From a virus: a DNA stretch of 21,375 bases. Every line of letters starts with the position of its first letter. Position 1 is the stretch's first letter. The stretch covers positions 1 through 21,375 of IMG/VR virus record IMGVR_UViG_3300050021_000475; one strand, 5' to 3'. The notes below the pieces were generated by a model, which did no database searches, was not told where the DNA came from, and saw only the letters and a list, made by a program, of their open reading frames with translations. Below are positions 1,749 through 13,011 of the stretch, piece by piece. The position numbers and the translations under genes were made by a program.

Positions 1749-1912
1749 AAAGCGAGCCACGGCGGGGCAGCACCCCAAGCAAAAAGAGCGGGCCACAGGA
1801 CGTTAGGAACCCAGAACGGTGGAGCGAGCCACAATCGACAAGAAACCCAAAGGTCACGAGCGAGCCAACACCAACAAGAAACCCAAAGAAGAGAAGCGAG
1901 TGAGTCTTTCGC
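1661..1912. repeat. 18/36-bp-period array of conserved and variable 9-mers
   Basis: There are seven units of exactly 36 bp starting at 1661, 1697, 1733, 1769, 1805, 1841 and 1877. Each unit is AGAAACCCA, nine variable bases, AGCGAGCCA, nine variable bases. Box 1 is exact in five of seven units (variants AGCACCCCA and AGGAACCCA). Box 2 is exact in four of seven (variants end GTCA or GTGA, or read GCGGGCCA). The two boxes resemble each other (AGnnA[C/G]CCA), so the underlying period is 18 bp with 14 boxes and no indel. A degenerate half box (TTACAGCCA) sits one step upstream at 1643-1651. The array covers the 3' end of the preceding gene and the gap before the IS110-like gene. It could be a protein-binding array, a structured RNA or a decayed coding repeat. 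Confidence 0.9.
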
Positions 1913-1926
1913 AGCAGGGGGGATCG

Positions 1927-2838
1927 GTGGAAAGCCAGACAAAGCAAGCCATGAAGACTCTGGTCAACACGTTCTATATGATGCAGAAGCTACGCATCCA
2001 AACCGGCAATCGGATCTGCCGCAACTTCACTGCCCAGCTCGGTCAGGAAGACGGCATGCCGCAGGACGAGTTGACGAGCGATGCGAAGGACACGCTCGAC
2101 ACCTTGAAGGCAGAGCATAAACTTCTCGCTTCCGCCTTGGCGGGCAGCATCAACATCAAGAAGCGGCGCGCGCTACTCGATGAGCATGCCGGCATTCTCA
2201 GCACGCCCTATGAGTACGCGATGGTTGAATCGTACGTGGATTTGGAACATAACGAGGAACGGCTCGGGCGTGAGATCGCCGCGATGGTCGCTGAGCATCC
2301 GCTTTGGGATGGATTCCTTCAGGATGTGAAGGGTATCGGTCCTATCCTCGCTGCGGTGATCATTGCAGAGCTTGACCCGTCTGCGCCCTATCCCTCGTCA
2401 TTCTGGAAATACGCCGGCCTTGACGTGGCAGACGATGGCGCGGGCCGCTCTCGCCGCGCCGAGCACCTCGTCACCCGCGCGTACACCAACAGGGAGGGTC
2501 AGCCGGCTGAGCGGCAATCTATCACTTTCAATATGTTCCTCAAGACAAAGATGATTGGCGTCGCGGGCCCCTGTCTGCTTCGTGCTGGCGGGGAGTATGC
2601 CACGGTGTATCGAGATTACAAGCATCGACTGGAGAATAGACCCGATGTGGGCCTGACGGCGGAAGCTGTGAAGTGGCCGGGGGCCAGCAAATTGCATCGG
2701 CATAACATGGCAATGCGGTATGCCGTGAAGATGTTCCTCAAGGATCTTCATTCGCGGTGGCGTGCTATCGAGGGACTTGCCCCCAGCCTCCCCTACCAGG
2801 AAGCGAAACTCGGCTACCACCACGGGCAGGGAGGGTAG
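1927..2838 (+). CDS. IS110-type transposase C-terminal domain (HhH) protein, lacking the DEDD domain
   Basis: The C-terminal half contains GFLQDVKGIGPILAAVIIAE followed by FWKYAGLDV, the helix-hairpin-helix signature of the Transposase_20 (IS116/IS110/IS902) domain. Further on come a YRDYKHRL segment and a basic helical region (KLHRHNMAMRYAVKMFLKDL), similar to the family's last helices. The N-terminal ~150 residues do not look like the RuvC-like DEDD domain of IS110, and the usual Ser-Gly of the catalytic segment after YAGL is replaced by DDGAGRSRR. It is therefore probably a stand-alone DNA- or RNA-junction binding protein, not an active element. GTG 1927 is preferred because G6 (1917-1922) precedes it; ATG 1951 and GTG 1819 (inside the array) are alternatives. 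Confidence 0.75.
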   Translation: MESQTKQAMKTLVNTFYMMQKLRIQTGNRICRNFTAQLGQEDGMPQDELTSDAKDTLDTLKAEHKLLASALAGSINIKKRRALLDEHAGILSTPYEYAMVESYVDLEHNEERLGREIAAMVAEHPLWDGFLQDVKGIGPILAAVIIAELDPSAPYPSSFWKYAGLDVADDGAGRSRRAEHLVTRAYTNREGQPAERQSITFNMFLKTKMIGVAGPCLLRAGGEYATVYRDYKHRLENRPDVGLTAEAVKWPGASKLHRHNMAMRYAVKMFLKDLHSRWRAIEGLAPSLPYQEAKLGYHHGQGG

Positions 2839-3432: not shown

Positions 3433-3835
3433 AGAAGCATTGTTGCGCGCCTTCGCGGTGTTGCGACTGCAGGTAGACGATGGTTCATTCTGGGGGGAAG
3501 ACGGGTTTGGCCCGCATTTGGGTGATGTAGATGATCCCACGACATTCAACCACGAATGGGAACACAAGCGGGTGATTGGGCCGAATGGGCTACGAGATCT
3601 GAGCAAAGCACCGATATATGAGTGCCAGGACTGCCATATCATCGTGCCGGAAAAGATGGTGGCTGTAGAACGGCGGCCTTTATATGGCAGGGACACAGAG
3701 GGAACGACACAACAAATCCAACCGGACATTCCTGCCGGCCAGGAAGACTGCCCCGTCGCACGAGCTCTATGGGAAGATAAGGTGGAAAAGGAAGTAGCAG
3801 CGTTGAAAGAGCGGTTCGCCCGTGAGATCACATGA
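3425..3835 (+). CDS. Unknown protein with CxxC and a C-terminal motif shared with its neighbour
   Basis: The GTG start at 3425 overlaps the preceding gene by 8 bp. The protein has 136 residues. It carries one CxxC (YECQDCHIIVPEK) near the middle, like half of a zinc ribbon, preceded by a His in FNHEWEH. The last ~28 residues (from CPVARALW) match the tail of the upstream HTH protein in pattern CPxARxxWxxxVxxEvxxLKExF, so both probably bind the same partner or arose by partial duplication. No family is recognised. It is the last gene before the 243-bp gap upstream of terS. Confidence 0.6.
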   Translation: MNEEALLRAFAVLRLQVDDGSFWGEDGFGPHLGDVDDPTTFNHEWEHKRVIGPNGLRDLSKAPIYECQDCHIIVPEKMVAVERRPLYGRDTEGTTQQIQPDIPAGQEDCPVARALWEDKVEKEVAALKERFAREIT

Positions 3836-3868
3836 TTGTACAAAGCCGGATGGAGAATAGAGGGACTC

Positions 3869-3898
3869 TTGACGTGCACGCTTCTTCATGCACATAAT
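3869..3898 (+). promoter_or_regulatory. Candidate sigma-70-type promoter upstream of terS
   Basis: TTGACG (3869-3874) and CATAAT (3893-3898) each match 5 of 6 consensus bases and are 18 bp apart. The spacer contains an inverted repeat, GTGCA (3874-3878) and TGCAC (3889-3893), which could be a repressor or activator site. It lies in the only sizeable gap between the early-type genes and the packaging genes, and would give a leader of about 170 nt before terS. Assigned by eye only. Confidence 0.5.
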
Positions 3899-4078: not shown

Positions 4079-4540
4079 ATGGCCCTTACTCTCAAGCAGC
4101 AACGCTACACCACGGCGTACCTAGGACCAGCTAAGGGCAACGCGACGGAAGCAGCGCGGATTGCTGGGTACCGAGATCCCGAGCAGTCTGGCTGGGAGAA
4201 CAGGCACAACCTAGAGATTGCCGCGCGCATTGAGGAGCGCTTGCTTGCCGAGTCGCTGTCCAGCGGGGAAGTGCTGGCCGAACTGACCGCCATTGCGCGG
4301 GCTGGGTGGACCAACTTCGTCCGGGAGCGCACAGACTACAAGGGCGAAGTGATATCAGCCACGCTGGATCTGGGCGATAAGGTCAAGGCTCTGGAATTGC
4401 TTGGCAAATACCACAAGCTCTTCACGGACAAGACGGAGCACTCGGTTGATGCAAACTTCCTTGACGCGCTCCGCGCCTTCGCCACTGGTGCTGACGAGTC
4501 TGGATCGGCAGGGTCTCCAGAAGCTTCGGACTCAGCCTGA
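4079..4540 (+). CDS. terS: Terminase small subunit
   Basis: The N-terminus (LTLKQQRYTTAYLGPAKGNATEAARIAGY) has the Terminase_2-type pattern: a 'LTxKQxrf..aYL' helix, then N-x-t-x-AA-x-x-AGY, the helix-turn-helix that recognises the packaging site. The central region (EVLAELTAIARAGWTNFV, then KVKALELLGKYHKLF) also matches small terminases, where 'AL.lLgK..klf' is typical. At 153 residues the length is normal. ATG 4079 has a modest SD (AGTAGG, 4065-4070). The 3' end overlaps terL in another frame, as usual. TerS binds phage DNA and hands it to TerL for packaging into proheads. Confidence 0.85.
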   Translation: MALTLKQQRYTTAYLGPAKGNATEAARIAGYRDPEQSGWENRHNLEIAARIEERLLAESLSSGEVLAELTAIARAGWTNFVRERTDYKGEVISATLDLGDKVKALELLGKYHKLFTDKTEHSVDANFLDALRAFATGADESGSAGSPEASDSA

Positions 4541-5933
4541 CCAGTTCATCCGCGTGTGGCTTGGCGGCGACCTCTGGGCCAAGCAGATCGAGATCGCGGA
4601 GTCGGTCCGCGACCACCGGCGCACGGCGGTCAAGAGCGCCCACTCGGTCGGCAAGTCGTTCATATCCGCGCGGATTGGCGTGTGGTGGCTCCATGCTTGG
4701 CAGCCATCCGTCGTACTCACGACCGCCCCAACTGGGCGCCAGGTGACAAATATTTTGTGGAGGGAGTGGCGCACCGCAGTTGCCAAGACGAAGCTCCCGC
4801 TGCTTGGCCGCTGTCTGGTGCAACGGCACGAGATCGCACCGGACTGGTACGCGATCGGCTTCAAGGCCGCGGACACGGACCCAGACGCCTTCCAGGGCTT
4901 CCATAGTCTCAAGCCGCTGGTGATCGTGGACGAGGCGGCCGGCGTGCCCGAGACCGTCTTTGACGCACTCGACGCCGTGATGAGCAACCAAGACGCACGC
5001 ATGTTGCTGATCGGTAACCCGACCAACCCGGCCGGCACGTTCTACAACGCCTTCCACAAGGACCGCGCGCTTTACCACACCATTAGCGTGACCGCCTACG
5101 ACACGCCCAACTTTCAACCCGGCGCGCGCCAACGGCCCTATCTGGTCAGTCCCCAAGCCGTGCAGGAAGAGATCGACAAGCACGGACCCGACTCGACCTG
5201 GGTTCGCTGTCGTATTAATGCGGAGTTCCCTGAGGGCAGTAGCCAGGGCTTGATCCCACTGGCCTGGGTCGAAGCAGCCAACGAGCGGCGCATCGAGCAC
5301 GAGTCCGGCGATATCGAGGCCGGCCTGGATATCAGTCGTGGGGGCGATGACGAAACTGCGCTGTGCATCCGCCGCGGAATCCAGGTACTTGAGCAGCATG
5401 CATGGAGTGGGCCCGAGACGCGTGACCTGATGGCCACGGTCGGCAAGGTGCGAAACCTGCTGGCGCCATACCCGACGCTCAAGGCGATCAAGGTGGACGT
5501 GATCGGTATCGGCGCCGGCGTGTATGACCGGATGCGTGAGCTCGGCTATCCGGCTATCGCGGTCAACGTCGGATCGGCCAGCAGCGACAAGTCTAAGTGG
5601 TCAAACCTTCGCCACGAACTCTACTGGTCCATGCGCGAGATATTCCACGACGGCGCGATCGCTGGCCCGCTGGACGAACTGTGCATGGGGCAACTCGCGG
5701 ACGTTCGGGCCAGCTATGACTCGGCGCATAGCATGCCGGTGATCGAGAAGAAGGAAGACATGAAGAAGCGACCCGGCGGTCATAGCCCTGACCGTGCTGA
5801 GGCGCTGCTGCTCGCGTTTACCAATCAGGTGCCACATGGGTACGGCCAGGTGGTCTATGCCGGCGAGCGTAGTTCCATCAGGGTACCAGCGCCAGCGGAG
5901 GACGGCTGGTGGTCTAGACTCGGGAATGAGTAA
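4488..5933 (+). CDS. terL: Terminase large subunit (packaging ATPase and nuclease)
   Basis: The N-terminal ATPase has an atypical Walker A (SAHSVGKS, 4635-4658) and Walker B (LVIVDEAAG, about 4917-4943), followed by LIGNPTNPAGTFY, a typical coupling segment. The C-terminal RNase H-like nuclease shows AGLDISRGGDDETA (first Asp), VDVIGIGAGVYDRM (second acid) and SPDRAEALLLAF (third acid), the usual DDE set. The frame is open from TTG 4401, but GTG 4488 is a more conservative start, overlapping terS by about 50 bp; ATG 4449 is an alternative. TerL cuts concatemeric DNA and pumps it into the prohead through the portal. Confidence 0.92.
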   Translation: MLTSLDRQGLQKLRTQPDQFIRVWLGGDLWAKQIEIAESVRDHRRTAVKSAHSVGKSFISARIGVWWLHAWQPSVVLTTAPTGRQVTNILWREWRTAVAKTKLPLLGRCLVQRHEIAPDWYAIGFKAADTDPDAFQGFHSLKPLVIVDEAAGVPETVFDALDAVMSNQDARMLLIGNPTNPAGTFYNAFHKDRALYHTISVTAYDTPNFQPGARQRPYLVSPQAVQEEIDKHGPDSTWVRCRINAEFPEGSSQGLIPLAWVEAANERRIEHESGDIEAGLDISRGGDDETALCIRRGIQVLEQHAWSGPETRDLMATVGKVRNLLAPYPTLKAIKVDVIGIGAGVYDRMRELGYPAIAVNVGSASSDKSKWSNLRHELYWSMREIFHDGAIAGPLDELCMGQLADVRASYDSAHSMPVIEKKEDMKKRPGGHSPDRAEALLLAFTNQVPHGYGQVVYAGERSSIRVPAPAEDGWWSRLGNE

Positions 5934-5941
5934 AAATAGAA

Positions 5942-5973
5942 GGAAGCAGCAAGTATTTCCTCCTGCTGCTTCC
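5942..5973 (-). terminator. Rho-independent terminator of the leftward two-gene unit
   Basis: GGAAGCAGCA (5942-5951) pairs perfectly over 10 bp with TGCTGCTTCC (5964-5973) around a 12-nt loop. Read on the minus strand the stem is followed by TTCTATTTTTA, a good U-tract, so it should end transcripts of the leftward genes at 7170-6092. On the plus strand, just after terL, no T-run follows, so there it is only a hairpin. Confidence 0.7.
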
Positions 5974-5980
5974 CGCCTCT

Positions 5981-6091
5981 GGTTTAACTGCCCCAGGCCA
6001 GACCTGTCCTTGAGCAGCCCAGCCTGTCCTCATCGGTCCGCGTCGGGTCGCTCCGCACCGCCCCTTGCCATTCCGTGCCCAAGTATCCGTG
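5981..6091. repeat. Left pentanucleotide-period array (NNCCN on the plus strand)
   Basis: From 5991 to 6080 the sequence divides into 18 consecutive pentamers. In 14 of them positions 3-4 are CC and in three more they are TC, while the other positions vary freely. The array begins with GGTTTAACTGCCCC (5981-5994), nearly the same as the left edge of the second array at 7192, and ends against the stop codon (6092-6094) of the leftward gene. On the leftward transcript it is a G-rich 3' untranslated stretch before the terminator hairpin. Confidence 0.8.
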
Positions 6092-6535
6092 CTAGGCTGC
6101 TTGTTCGTTTCTGTTCAGGAGTTCACGCATCATCGCGAATACCGGCTCTAACTCGGGAAGCATGCGGTACTTGTGTTCGAAGGCTTCCATCTCGCGTTTG
6201 GCATCCGCGAACATCTGGGCCTTGTAGTCCGTATCCGAGTAGACATCCGCCGTCAACCGATAGAATCCCTCAGGACCGCGATCCGGTGTCAAGGACACGA
6301 ACGCTCGTACCTTGATTGGTTCCTGATCGGGGCGCTCAAGCACATGGACCGTAACTCGGATATAGTCGTGTGCCTGGTGAATGCGATACTGCTCCCCGGC
6401 GACCGCATCGTCCCATTCAAAGTAGCGATGGAGTGGTGCATCTTCTGGCCTGGCAGCGTTCACCACATCCGCTGGCTTGAGAACCTTGTTATGATCGGCT
6501 GCCAGTCTGAGCAGTTCATCGCGTAGTGCGCTCAT
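6092..6535 (-). CDS. Unknown phage protein, second gene of the inverted cassette
   Basis: This is a 147-residue soluble protein. It has a helical N-terminus (ALRDELLRLAADHNKVLKPA), a central SPLH-like segment (APLHRYFEWDDAVAGEQYRI), a beta-rich middle (YIRVTVHVLER, VRAFVSLTPDRG) and a helical C-terminus (AMFA-type AKREMEAFEHKYRML). I have an impression that proteins of this layout occur in other phages, but I know of no function for them. Its start overlaps the stop of the upstream gene as ATGA, so the two are coupled. It is antisense to the flanking structural genes, with its stop abutting the left pentamer array. Confidence 0.75.
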   Translation of the reverse strand: MSALRDELLRLAADHNKVLKPADVVNAARPEDAPLHRYFEWDDAVAGEQYRIHQAHDYIRVTVHVLERPDQEPIKVRAFVSLTPDRGPEGFYRLTADVYSDTDYKAQMFADAKREMEAFEHKYRMLPELEPVFAMMRELLNRNEQAA

Positions 6536-7170
6536 GCTGCATCCCTATCTTCGATAGTGAAGAGTCCCCAGCCCATGCCGGCGCTCTTCTTGGAATCCGG
6601 GCGACCCTCGCCAATGCCGACTTGCTCCCCGACGCGGCTGAGCAGGTTGGTAATGTCCGATGCCGTGAACTGGTCCGCGTCAAACCGGATACGCAGGGTG
6701 ATCTTCCAGTTGTGATATGCAGGGCGCACGCAGATGTATGGCTCTCCGGTGCTGGTGCGCGCTACGTCTTCTTGTTTGACCGGATCAGCGTCGATACGAA
6801 CGAGCGGTATCTGTGGCTCCAGTGTGTCCCAGCCGTCGGCGACCACGAAGATCGAGAGTTTGGCCAGCGTCATGGTGAAGCCAACGAGACGACAGGCCGA
6901 GATGAGCGCGGCACGGAATGCGCCCGCGTGTACGCCGTCCCAGCCACCCGGACCACGGTAGCGTGCTTCGTTGAAGAGGTCGTCCGTCAGTTTGGCTTCG
7001 CGGATCTTGCGTGAGGATGCTGCTTTGCCAGTCTCCATTTTCTGCTTGAACTCGTTCTTAAGCTTCGTCGAGATGCGGTGAACCACCAGCGGTGCGGTGC
7101 CCACGAGGGTGAACTCGCCCACTTGCATGTTCGGTGCCTTGATTTGAACTACTGCTTTCCGTGCTGGCAT
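6532..7170 (-). CDS. Unknown protein, first gene of the inverted cassette
   Basis: The start is ATG at 7170-7168, which follows a purine-rich GGGAGAGAAAG leader. The open frame extends to 7260 but that extension only translates the pentamer array. The 212-residue protein has an early beta hairpin (GEFTLVGTAPLVVHRI), a helix after GGWDGVHAGAFRAALISACR, and a glycine-rich C-terminus (VGIGEGRP, then GMGWGLFTI). The glycine-rich end and the 'G.....fR.ali.A' segment loosely recall RAMP/Cas7-type folds, but this is weak. It is translationally coupled to the next gene. No function is assigned. Confidence 0.75.
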   Translation of the reverse strand: MPARKAVVQIKAPNMQVGEFTLVGTAPLVVHRISTKLKNEFKQKMETGKAASSRKIREAKLTDDLFNEARYRGPGGWDGVHAGAFRAALISACRLVGFTMTLAKLSIFVVADGWDTLEPQIPLVRIDADPVKQEDVARTSTGEPYICVRPAYHNWKITLRIRFDADQFTASDITNLLSRVGEQVGIGEGRPDSKKSAGMGWGLFTIEDRDAA

Positions 7171-7191
7171 TATCTTTCTCTCCCGCTGATT

Positions 7192-7430
7192 GGTTAAACC
7201 TGCCCAGTCAAGCCCAGCCCAGTCACACCCCGCTCCGCCCCGCCCTGCCTTGCCGGCCATGTAGTGCCTCGCCTTGTCCAGTCGGGCCTAGCCAGCCCGG
7301 GCCGCGCCTGCCGTGTTCGCCCAGTCGAGCCTCGTCTAGTCGAGCCTCGCCTTTCCTGCCAATCCGTGCCTCGTTTAGCCTAGCTTTGCCTCTCCCTGTC
7401 TCGCCACGCCAAGCCTGCCGTGCATCAGTT
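7192..7430. repeat. Right pentanucleotide-period array
   Basis: This fills most of the 328-bp gap between the two divergent genes. It consists of about 45 pentamers with a recurrent [G/T]CC and two variable bases, with a few one-base phase shifts (for example near 7255 and 7316). On the minus strand it reads GGCNN over and over. Its left edge, GGTTAAACCTGCCC (7192-7205), nearly repeats the edge of the left array at 5981. It ends near 7430, before an AT-richer stretch. It lies in the 5' leader of the leftward transcript, between the promoter at 7475-7483 and the start codon at 7170. Confidence 0.8.
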
Positions 7431-7474
7431 ACGAATAGCTAGAATACATCTCTCTCCTCTCTACTAATGAGTCC

Positions 7475-7483
7475 ATTATACCA
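7475..7483 (-). promoter_or_regulatory. Extended -10 promoter for the leftward cassette
   Basis: The minus strand reads TGGTATAAT, a perfect -10 hexamer (7480-7475) with the TGn extension (7483-7481). No recognisable -35 hexamer is present at 16-18 bp, which extended -10 promoters tolerate. Transcription would start near 7468 and read through the right pentamer array into the genes at 7170-6092. The site overlaps the leader of the rightward portal gene. Confidence 0.55.
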
Positions 7484-7498: not shown

Positions 7499-9205
7499 AT
7501 GGCGAAGAAACCAGCCACTGGCGATACGTTGCCGGTTGCCGCGCCACTCCCTGGCTCAATCCAGAGCACCATCGAGATCGGAGGTAGACCAGGGGCGCCC
7601 AATACTGGGCAAGTTGCCCAAGCGCCCGAGGTGCGCACGCTGCGCTCAGATCCACGCAAAGACTATCTGGCAGCCGTAAACATCGGAACCACTTGGTACC
7701 TCAATCTGGCCCGGTCCCTGCCGCCGTACATCGACTCCTTGGAAGAGAAGAAGGGCGTCGATATCTACGAACGCATGATGGCGACCGACCCGCAGATCGC
7801 CGCCAATATCAATGTGTTCAAGGCATCGGTGATCGAGAATGGGCCGTCCTTCACCGCGGCTATCAGCGATACCGATAACCCGGACTTCCAGCAGGCTCAG
7901 TTCATCAAGGACTGGTGCGCGGCGATCATCACGGATCTGGGCCATTCGATTGACGACATCCTGTGGAATATGACCGATGCGTTTATCGTCGGAAACAAGG
8001 TCGCGGAACTCGTCTACGAGTATAGCGATCAGTATTGGCACTTGCCGGCCCGGGAGGACAAGCATGGCAAGACGCTGCCCATACCGACAGAGGCACCAGC
8101 GGGAGTCGGCGGCCCACAACTGATCCTGAAGGACATCAAAGTCAAGCCGCGCCGGTCATTGGGTTTCCTGTGCGACGCGTACATGAACATCCTGGGCATT
8201 CTAGGCCAAATTCCCGGCAACTTCTATCCGCTCATGCCCGGCATGGTCTACGCCAGCATCGACAACATTCCCAACCTGCTTCCGGCCGAGAAGTTCATGA
8301 TCCTGGCCTTCCGGCCACACGACTCCGATCCCCGCGGCGTTTCCATGCTGACGCCCGCCTACAATGCGTGGTACATCAAGCAGCAACTCTGGACGGAGTA
8401 CAGCCGCTTCCTCTCGCAGATGGCTGGCGGCATGGTCCTGGGGCAGCCCAGTCCTTCAGCCGTGCCACTTCAGATCCAGAACGCGGATGGAAGTCCCACC
8501 GGCGAGACGGCCACACCGGCCGAGGCCATGCTGCAGGTATTGCAAAAGGCTAAGAACGGCGCCGTGCTGGTTACCGAGTCTGGTTCGACGGTCGATGTCA
8601 AGTTCCCGGCTGGTGGGGGTGAAGCGTACCTGCAGGCATTCACGCTGCTCAACCTGGAGATGATCAAGGCCATCCTGCATGTCTCGCTGGCTACGACTGA
8701 GGGCGAGCACAACTCGCGCGCCGCCTCCGAGGTGCATGCCGACGTACTTTCCATCCTGATCCGCCAGGCCAAGGGGGCCGTGGAGCGTATGCTCAAGGAC
8801 GTGCTGCGTCGCATGGTCAAGTACAACTATGGTGAGGACGCGATCCGGTTCACGCCGAATGTCTCGCTCGGTAGCGTGAATACCGCGGATATGGCCAGCC
8901 TGATGGCGGTCATCGCCCAGTTGGTGGGATCCGGCTACTTCACCGCAGACCAGATGCCGCAGCTGGACGAGCTACTCAAGCTTCCCGTACGCACGCCCGA
9001 GGCGGTTGAGGAACAGCAGCAGGAGGCCGGGACGACCGGGGCATCGCAGCCGGAACCTGGCACGGGCACTGCCAGCCAGACCATCCAGCAGGGGCGCAAC
9101 CCGCGTGACATGGATCATGCAGATCCTTTGCGACCGGAAGAAACGCCTATTCCCGCATCCGATCACACGTATCTGCCCGCGCGACCTGCAAAGGGGGCAG
9201 CCTAG
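7499..9205 (+). CDS. Portal protein, Mu gp29-like (DUF935 family)
   Basis: This 568-residue protein has the DUF935 layout: a disordered Pro/Gly-rich N-terminus, then a helical wing (YERMMATDPQIAANINVFKA), FIVGNKVAELVYEY, a stretch with PAEKFMILAF, and a clip/stem region with helices (NLEMIKAILHVSLATTEGEHNSRAASEVH) typical of Mu-like portals. The C-terminal ~70 residues are Gln/Pro-rich and probably disordered. ATG 7499 has only a weak SD. The dodecameric portal forms the DNA entry channel and docks TerL, encoded one cassette upstream. The following gene encodes a MuF-type protein, the usual partner. Confidence 0.85.
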   Translation: MAKKPATGDTLPVAAPLPGSIQSTIEIGGRPGAPNTGQVAQAPEVRTLRSDPRKDYLAAVNIGTTWYLNLARSLPPYIDSLEEKKGVDIYERMMATDPQIAANINVFKASVIENGPSFTAAISDTDNPDFQQAQFIKDWCAAIITDLGHSIDDILWNMTDAFIVGNKVAELVYEYSDQYWHLPAREDKHGKTLPIPTEAPAGVGGPQLILKDIKVKPRRSLGFLCDAYMNILGILGQIPGNFYPLMPGMVYASIDNIPNLLPAEKFMILAFRPHDSDPRGVSMLTPAYNAWYIKQQLWTEYSRFLSQMAGGMVLGQPSPSAVPLQIQNADGSPTGETATPAEAMLQVLQKAKNGAVLVTESGSTVDVKFPAGGGEAYLQAFTLLNLEMIKAILHVSLATTEGEHNSRAASEVHADVLSILIRQAKGAVERMLKDVLRRMVKYNYGEDAIRFTPNVSLGSVNTADMASLMAVIAQLVGSGYFTADQMPQLDELLKLPVRTPEAVEEQQQEAGTTGASQPEPGTGTASQTIQQGRNPRDMDHADPLRPEETPIPASDHTYLPARPAKGAA

Positions 9206-12246: not shown

Positions 12247-13011
12247 TCAATGGTCTGGAAAGTTCAGGTGCGCGCGAGAGCCAAGCAGTTCTCGTGCCTT
12301 CGCATCATAGGCACGGGCGGCTTCTTCTGCGGTGGCGTAGTAGCCAATGTAGTGTGTTTTGCACTGCTGAGTGATTACGGCACGATACCTGCCAGTTTGA
12401 GGGTGAGGGCCCCAAACGCCGTTGAATCCGGTTCGATTGGTTGATATCAGGACGCTTCGTGTAGGTGCCTGGGCACTGGCGATTGGCGCATCACTTGATA
12501 GGTACGAATCCGCACTAGTCCGTGCAAACTCCCCGTGGGCCAATGTAGCTGCTTGGTCGTATGCGGCGGCCGCCTCCAATTCGGTGCGAAACACGCCAAT
12601 GTGGCGAATGGCACCATTGGCACGCAGTTGGGCACTCCATGGGTTTCGTTTCCTGTTCGTGGCGTAAACGCCCTTGTAGCCCGACGAATTGTTCGCGTAG
12701 CGCGTCGTGTTGGCCTTGTTCTGCGACGCTGTAGCACTGCGCATGTTGCATCGCCGGTTGTCCAGTCCATCCCCATTTTCGTGATCCACCAGCACATCAG
12801 TATCGATACCCATCAAAAGCCGGTGCATCAGCAGGATCCGTCGTGTTCCATCTGGCATCGATACTGAGTGGTTGGCGGCATACCAGAGTTCCCGATGCTT
12901 GGTGCGCGATTGGCGCATGGCATACCACCGCAAATGCCGCACGAGCGGCCAATCTTCCTCGTCTATGATCGCTTGTTTTCCCTGAGTCAAGAGAACGGCG
13001 ATGGTGCCCAT
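12247..13011 (-). CDS. HNH homing-type endonuclease with two AP2 DNA-binding domains
   Basis: This 254-residue protein reads against the structural genes. Residues about 60-105 carry the HNH_3-type nuclease core (LMHRLLMG, VDHENGDGLDNRRCNMR, SQNKANT). Two AP2 domains follow: SGYKGVYATNRKRNPWSAQL...GVFRTELEAAAAYDQAA and TGFNGVWGPHPQTGRYRAVI...GYYATAEEAARAYDAKA. ATG 13011-13009 has SD AAGGAGG. HNH-AP2 proteins are selfish homing endonucleases found in many phages, usually free-standing between virion genes. It occupies almost the whole gap between the decoration and capsid genes, so it probably arrived after the head module formed. Confidence 0.92.
   Translation of the reverse strand: MGTIAVLLTQGKQAIIDEEDWPLVRHLRWYAMRQSRTKHRELWYAANHSVSMPDGTRRILLMHRLLMGIDTDVLVDHENGDGLDNRRCNMRSATASQNKANTTRYANNSSGYKGVYATNRKRNPWSAQLRANGAIRHIGVFRTELEAAAAYDQAATLAHGEFARTSADSYLSSDAPIASAQAPTRSVLISTNRTGFNGVWGPHPQTGRYRAVITQQCKTHYIGYYATAEEAARAYDAKARELLGSRAHLNFPDH

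What the first reader, a model, noticed from the sequence alone, without database searches (positions are those of the whole stretch)
5981..7430. Pentanucleotide-period arrays flank the inverted cassette on both sides
Two tracts (5981-6091 and 7192-7430) share a five-base period with [C/T]C or [G/T]CC held constant and the other bases free, and start with nearly the same edge sequence (GGTTTAACTGCCCC and GGTTAAACCTGCCC). They fill exactly the two untranslated flanks of the leftward unit. On its mRNA they are G-rich (GGCNN); on the plus strand they are C-rich and G-poor in places, as in Rho-utilisation sites. They could therefore insulate the cassette from read-through, be targets of an RNA-binding protein, or be recombination edges by which the cassette moves.
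Basis: partly seen in the sequence, partly recalled or inferred. Interest (0 to 1): 0.8.

Follow-up and report, generated by a model that had tools for sequence, protein, structure and literature searches.

The report
Phage guide-RNA arrays (VIPR system)
The five-base-period tracts are very probably arrays of gapped guide RNAs that work with the neighbouring CRISPR-like protein, so this phage appears to carry a VIPR system, a kind of RNA-guided weapon against rival phages that was first described in 2026.

Summary
Both tracts, read on the leftward strand, are GGY-NN pentanucleotide arrays (7196-7419 and 5985-6079). They frame a two-gene operon with an extended -10 promoter and a hairpin terminator. 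The first gene (6532-7170, minus) has a Cas7-type RAMP fold. It belongs to PHROG 4652, the family that holds Vipr of phage SUSP1. In 82 of 86 relatives (70 of 74 distinct proteins) a same-strand GGYNN array lies within 1.5 kb. This is a VIPR locus: vipr, a partner gene (vap) and vrRNA arrays, as in preprint PMC13142463. Two results agree with its code (NN pairs, one target base skipped): NN dinucleotides look like codon positions 1-2, and four of 495 guides, from two phage lineages, spell conserved vipr motifs in sense frame. Differences from the SUSP1 type: guides of mostly 7-13 NN run together, punctuated by a four-base GGCA|GGC step; no shared 3' tail; partner gene PHROG 15946. No target of the window's own guides was found. 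The Rho, insulator and recombination readings are not supported.

The parts
7475..7483 (-). extended -10 promoter element TGGTATAAT of the leftward operon; expected start near 7468
   Evidence: read directly; the consensus scan did not list it, no fitting -35 box
7196..7419 (-). vrRNA array 1 (5' flank): four runs of GGYNN units separated by four-base GGCA/GGCC steps; guide runs at 7361-7415, 7313-7356, 7259-7308, 7205-7254
   Evidence: HMM score 72.5; run coordinates follow from the unit list
6532..7170 (-). vipr gene: 212-aa RAMP-fold protein, PHROG 4652
6092..6535 (-). partner gene (vap candidate), 147 aa, PHROG 15946; start overlaps the vipr stop (ATGA)
5985..6079 (-). vrRNA array 2 (3' flank): 19 units, more degenerate, no GGCA step
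   Evidence: HMM score 23.7
5941..5974 (-). intrinsic terminator of the operon: 13-pair stem, loop of 8, U-rich tail
   Evidence: z-score -4.98

Best explanation
The locus is a VIPR system (Viral Interference Programmable Repeat) carried by a tailed phage between its terminase and portal genes. One leftward transcript carries array 1, vipr, the partner gene and array 2, and ends at a hairpin terminator. Vipr, a minimal Cas7-like RAMP, binds the repeated GGY triplets of the array RNA, probably one subunit per five-base unit (inferred). The two free bases of each unit together form a gapped guide: successive NN pairs match target DNA with one target base skipped, so in coding targets the skipped base is the wobble position. 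Bound Vipr would block transcription of the target, most likely genes of rival phages, including their vipr genes (repression is shown in the preprint for other VIPRs; here it is inferred). Array 1 holds four guides of about 9-11 NN, set off from each other by GGCA|GGC steps, which I take to be handles or processing points (inferred). Array 2 holds one longer guide. Shown here: array periodicity, strand and linkage, predicted RAMP fold, family membership, operon signals, codon-phase statistics. Not shown: transcription, RNA binding, any target of this phage.
For: RAMP fold: AlphaFold2 pLDDT 90.8; all 50 listed Foldseek matches are CRISPR RAMP-containing effector entries (Csm, Cmr, type VII, III-D, Cas7-11/gRAMP), best E 4.4e-5; VIA-align Z up to 11.6 (rmsd 3.4 A over 149 residues). 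Family: window protein and SUSP1 Vipr both fall in PHROG 4652 (E 2e-13 and 1.4e-96); the profile of 66 relatives hits PDB chain 36pp_D 'SUSP1 Vipr protein' at E 9e-5. Linkage: 82 of 86 relatives (70 of 74 distinct proteins) have a same-strand array within 1.5 kb, at 33-68% GC; in 1.83 Mb of relatives' contigs 54 of 70 arrays lie within 2.5 kb of vipr. The same model, set up before SUSP1 was fetched, finds three arrays in the SUSP1 locus, where the preprint reports four vrRNAs. Partner: PHROG 15946 profile matches in 77 of 89 loci; in 50,697 phage records A and B hit the same six. Code: NN composition fits sense codon positions 1-2 (mixture weight 0.72; 0 for the other two phases); bases within NN are coupled (71 nats), bases across units are not (4.5 nats); four of 495 guides match vipr codon motifs at 25-26 bits, best of 2475 shuffles 18.0.
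Against: No target for the window's own guides: four exact 1-nt-skip patterns (guides 1 and 3, with 10 and 9 NN each) had no match in IMG/VR, and none stood out in the held DNA. Bulk DNA searches gave no excess for a one-base skip in 0.66 Mb and a weak one in 2.57 Mb (13 matches at P<0.02 against 5, 3 and 9 for skips 0, 2, 3); guides against vipr and partner genes did not beat shuffles in number. One Roseococcus guide in 200 related genomes gave one match, as chance would. The dinucleotide-coupling test alone cannot tell sense 1-2 from antisense 2-3 (gains 49.1 and 48.6). No conserved 3' tail, a feature of the published SUSP1 clade, was seen (94 array ends). The window arrays are more degenerate than most. 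Guide boundaries depend on my parsing.
Confidence: 0.9

Rival explanations
1. The arrays are RNA-binding sites through which Vipr regulates its own operon (a TRAP-like scaffold or autoregulation), not guides; the NN bases are free spacers.
For: Arrays lie in the operon's own untranslated regions on the same strand; period 5 with a fixed triplet also suits a ring or filament protein (TRAP comparison recalled, not tested).
Against: Free spacers would not be expected to resemble codon positions 1-2, to be coupled inside NN but not across units, or to spell vipr motifs of other phages better than the own gene.
Confidence: 0.05
2. C-rich, G-poor Rho-utilisation or insulator sequence that shields the leftward cassette.
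For: Plus strand is C-rich in both tracts.
Against: 103 of 109 arrays lie on the vipr strand, where they are G-rich; arrays keep the same design in phages of 33-68% GC; a hairpin terminator follows array 2.
Confidence: 0.01
3. Recombination edges of a mobile cassette, with the similar 14-base edges as ends.
For: The cassette sits between terminase and portal; a distant terminase relative (36.7% identity) has its next gene 2 bases after the terminase stop (that next gene had no PHROG match).
Against: Edges are no rarer than chance as 14-mers, not conserved at 94 array ends, and relatives carry arrays on either or only one side of vipr.
Confidence: 0.03

Closest known systems
VIPR system of Escherichia phage SUSP1 (type II; PMC13142463, whole main text read)
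   Same: Vipr of the same PHROG; GGY/NN arrays upstream and downstream of a two-gene locus in a phage
   Different: SUSP1 has separate vrRNAs each with a 3' tail (preprint) and no GGCA step; its neighbouring 146-aa protein gave no match to the PHROG 15946 profile built here; Vipr sequence similarity is weak
Other VIPR array designs named in PMC13142463 (staggered arrays with overlapping vrRNAs)
   Same: possibly the same design: several guides in one array
   Different: could not be compared: the figure is in a supplement that could not be opened here
CRISPR Class 1 Cas7-type RAMPs (Csm3, Cmr, type VII)
   Same: predicted RAMP fold over nearly the whole protein
   Different: guides here are gapped pentanucleotide runs and the operon has only two genes
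VIPR-like loci of Gordonia phages ODay and Pipp and Cyanophage Cy-LDV1 (not annotated as such in their records)
   Same: PHROG 4652 protein, PHROG 15946 homologue and GGYNN arrays with GGCA steps
   Different: 29-52% identical to the window's Vipr; placed at other sites of the phage genome

Membership tests
VIPR | Vipr: minimal RAMP protein | tested here: met
   PHROG shared with SUSP1 Vipr; 36pp_D by profile
VIPR | glycine-rich loop and thumb of RAMPs | tested here: inconclusive
   conserved GEGRPDSKxSAGMGWG stretch with invariant glycines in the relatives; its role as G-loop and the thumb were not mapped on the model
VIPR | vrRNAs of alternating GGY/NN units next to vipr | tested here: met
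   sequence level only; control on SUSP1
VIPR | 9-16 units per vrRNA | tested here: inconclusive
   336 complete runs between steps: 5-16 NN, most 7-13, peak 9; transcript ends unknown
VIPR type II (SUSP1 clade) | invariable 3' tail after the repeat tract | tested here: not met
   94 array ends show no shared tail by eye and by motif counts; the preprint names other array designs, so this bars the type II label, not the VIPR label
VIPR | accessory gene (vap) beside vipr | tested here: met
   PHROG 15946 profile matches in 77 of 89 loci; only a weak winged-helix-like resemblance of residues 1-101, Z up to 5.8; whether it is one of the published vap1-6 is unknown
VIPR | target recognition by NN with one skipped base | tested here: inconclusive
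   for; no target of the window's guides:
VIPR | arrays are transcribed and bound by Vipr | not testable with these tools
   promoter and terminator signals only
CRISPR-Cas | constant repeats with unique spacers, and several cas genes | tested here: not met
   the tandem repeat scan lists no CRISPR-like array at the locus; two genes between terminase and portal

The most novel reading that the evidence does not exclude
This is a separate VIPR design in which guides are laid head to tail in one continuous transcript and punctuated by a strictly kept GCAGG step (GGCA|GGC, spacing 5k+4), with no 3' tail: the step would be the handle and cutting point, an analogue of the CRISPR repeat, and the system would store many guides per phage, some aimed at the vipr genes of rivals while sparing its own.
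Probability: 0.35. Interest if true: 0.78.

Novelty: new member of a known kind. Interest (0 to 1): 0.62.

Why it matters
VIPR is a very recently described and possibly ancestral relative of CRISPR whose guide code is gapped. Meeting it again from raw sequence, with codon-phase statistics and vipr-against-vipr guides in loci with a different array form and partner gene, supports the published code. The punctuated arrays would let one test how multi-guide VIPR transcripts are cut and how guides change.

Tried and rejected
TRAP-like binding was my first idea from the period of five; it gave way when the profile hit SUSP1 Vipr. Direct target search in held DNA: no excess; in 2.57 Mb: weak, and the strongest hits there were at skip 3, one guide from L123 against one repetitive stretch of L032, which I regard as low complexity. 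A direct search of all guides against vipr and partner genes did not beat shuffles in number; only the profile search in codon space did, and there antisense vipr and sense partner-gene searches gave nothing above shuffles. Of the two L150 guides that match vipr motifs, the exact pattern of one gave no IMG/VR match and that of the other three, none in a recognisable vipr gene. Roseococcus guide: chance. Rfam: no match in the window. PADLOC: no match. NCBIfam: nothing above cut-off. RNA folding of the arrays: no more stable than shuffles. Fold of the partner protein: no Foldseek match at E<=0.001. The type number (I-VII) could not be assigned. Literature: one paper describes VIPR; searches listed no other on it in the held library, which lacks most subscription journals.

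Full report
What was checked. The window is a 21,375-base IMG/VR virus record with terminase (4401-5933, +), Mu-type portal (7499-9205, +) and capsid genes. Between terminase and portal lies a leftward pair of genes flanked by the two tracts. Lag-5 identity is 0.44 and 0.51 in the tracts, and a model of GGYNN units that allows four-base steps places arrays at 7196-7419 (score 72.5) and 5985-6079 (23.7), both on the minus strand. One dinucleotide shuffle of each of 41 sources gave nothing above 12.

Operon. On the minus strand an extended -10 box TGGTATAAT lies at 7483-7475, array 1 follows, then vipr (start 7170 by alignment), the partner gene with an ATGA overlap, array 2, and a 13-pair hairpin with a U-rich tail at 5974-5941. 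These are sequence signals; transcription was not shown.

Protein A. An AlphaFold2 model from 66 relatives has pLDDT 90.8. All 50 listed Foldseek matches are entries of CRISPR RAMP-containing effectors (best E 4.4e-5); VIA-align gives Z 11.6, 3.4 A over 149 residues. The profile hits PDB chain 36pp_D, 'SUSP1 Vipr protein', E 9e-5. The SUSP1 protein taken from its record falls in PHROG 4652 at 1.4e-96 and the window protein in the same PHROG at 2e-13.

Linkage. Two scans gave relatives: 80 of 148 viral matches kept and six in genomes. Of these 86 loci, 82 (70 of 74 distinct proteins) have a same-strand array within 1.5 kb; 103 of 109 arrays are on the vipr strand; of arrays within 1.5 kb on that strand 18 are upstream and 82 downstream. 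The four misses are L052, L088, L091 and L093; L091 and L093 still show a lag-5 signal and L093 reads as GAY-NN rather than GGY-NN (sequence). GC of the loci runs from 33 to 68%. The 86 include near-duplicates, hence the count by distinct protein. In 1.83 Mb from 42 of 50 handled contigs (the other eight, and the remainders of some, were not fetched), 54 of 70 arrays lie within 2.5 kb of vipr; some of the 16 others lie at the ends of my 20-kb pieces. The partner family is found in 77 of 89 loci, and in 50,697 phage records the searches with A and with B hit the same six.

Array grammar. GCAGG[CT] recurs at spacings of 5k+4 (39, 44, 49, 54, 59, 64, 69; peak 49), which nine control motifs do not show. 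Between steps there are mostly 7-13 NN (336 runs in 71 loci). At the unit after the step the two G are kept at 1.00 and 0.99, against 0.89 and 0.80 in the middle of runs, and the last N1 before the step is A in 62%; part of the step's conservation comes from its definition. SUSP1 arrays show no such step. The window's array 1 has four runs; array 2 has none of the steps.

The code. PMC13142463 (whole main text read; supplement not available) reports that vrRNAs of 9-16 GGY/NN units recognise DNA through NN with one skipped base. Here, 4711 NN from 466 guides were compared with codon phases of 187 long ORFs from the loci: a mixture gave 0.72 to sense positions 1-2, 0.02 to antisense 1-2, 0.25 to uniform and 0 to the other phases. 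A constant codon phase along a guide implies a step of three target bases, that is one skipped base. Inside NN the bases are coupled (gain 71 nats over independence), across units they are not (4.5 nats); the coupling alone does not separate sense 1-2 from antisense 2-3. In codon space, four of 495 guides match the Vipr family at 25-26 bits (L018 and L021, near-identical; two guides of L150, a piece of the contig of L042) against at most 18.0 in 2475 shuffles. They match the stretches MGWGLFE, GMGWG-FE and a motif near residue 70 of the family. Mismatches to the own vipr gene are 4, 3 and 7; to the best other vipr gene 0, 1 and 3. [quoted passage not shown]

What failed. No target of the window's guides was found, bulk searches showed little or no excess, and one Roseococcus guide gave chance results in 200 genomes. 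So the guide function is inferred for this window from family, array form and the statistics of relatives.

Verdict. A VIPR locus, confidence 0.9; a new member of a kind published in 2026. The GGCA-punctuated, tail-less arrays and the PHROG 15946 partner differ from the SUSP1 type, but may be one of the seven types or the 'staggered arrays' of the preprint, which I could not compare.

Noticed in passing
L196:7922-8890 (142.8-kb contig of L080, IMGVR_UViG_3300024331_000152): A second, divergent Vipr-like gene (8156-8797, PHROG 4652 E 2.3e-17, PDB 36pp_D E 2.1e-6) flanked by its own GGY/NN arrays: two VIPR loci on one phage contig.
   Followed up: partly
L194:13170-13224, L195:5406-5479, L179:18202-18256: Short solitary GGY/NN arrays more than 6 kb from the vipr gene or on a piece without one: possible orphan vrRNAs.
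   Followed up: partly
L096:3614-3847 (Gordonia phage Pipp): Annotated gene 43 (3617-3886) overlaps a vrRNA-like array and is probably not a protein gene.
   Followed up: no
L093:4620-4830: The Dadabacteria relative has a period-5 array with GAY instead of GGY (sequence).
   Followed up: no
window 12247-13011, minus: HNH endonuclease with an AP2 domain, a homing-type gene against the grain of the head genes.
   Followed up: no
window 1819-2838, plus: IS110-type transposase-like gene that opens with a 36-base tandem repeat at 1823-1900.
   Followed up: no
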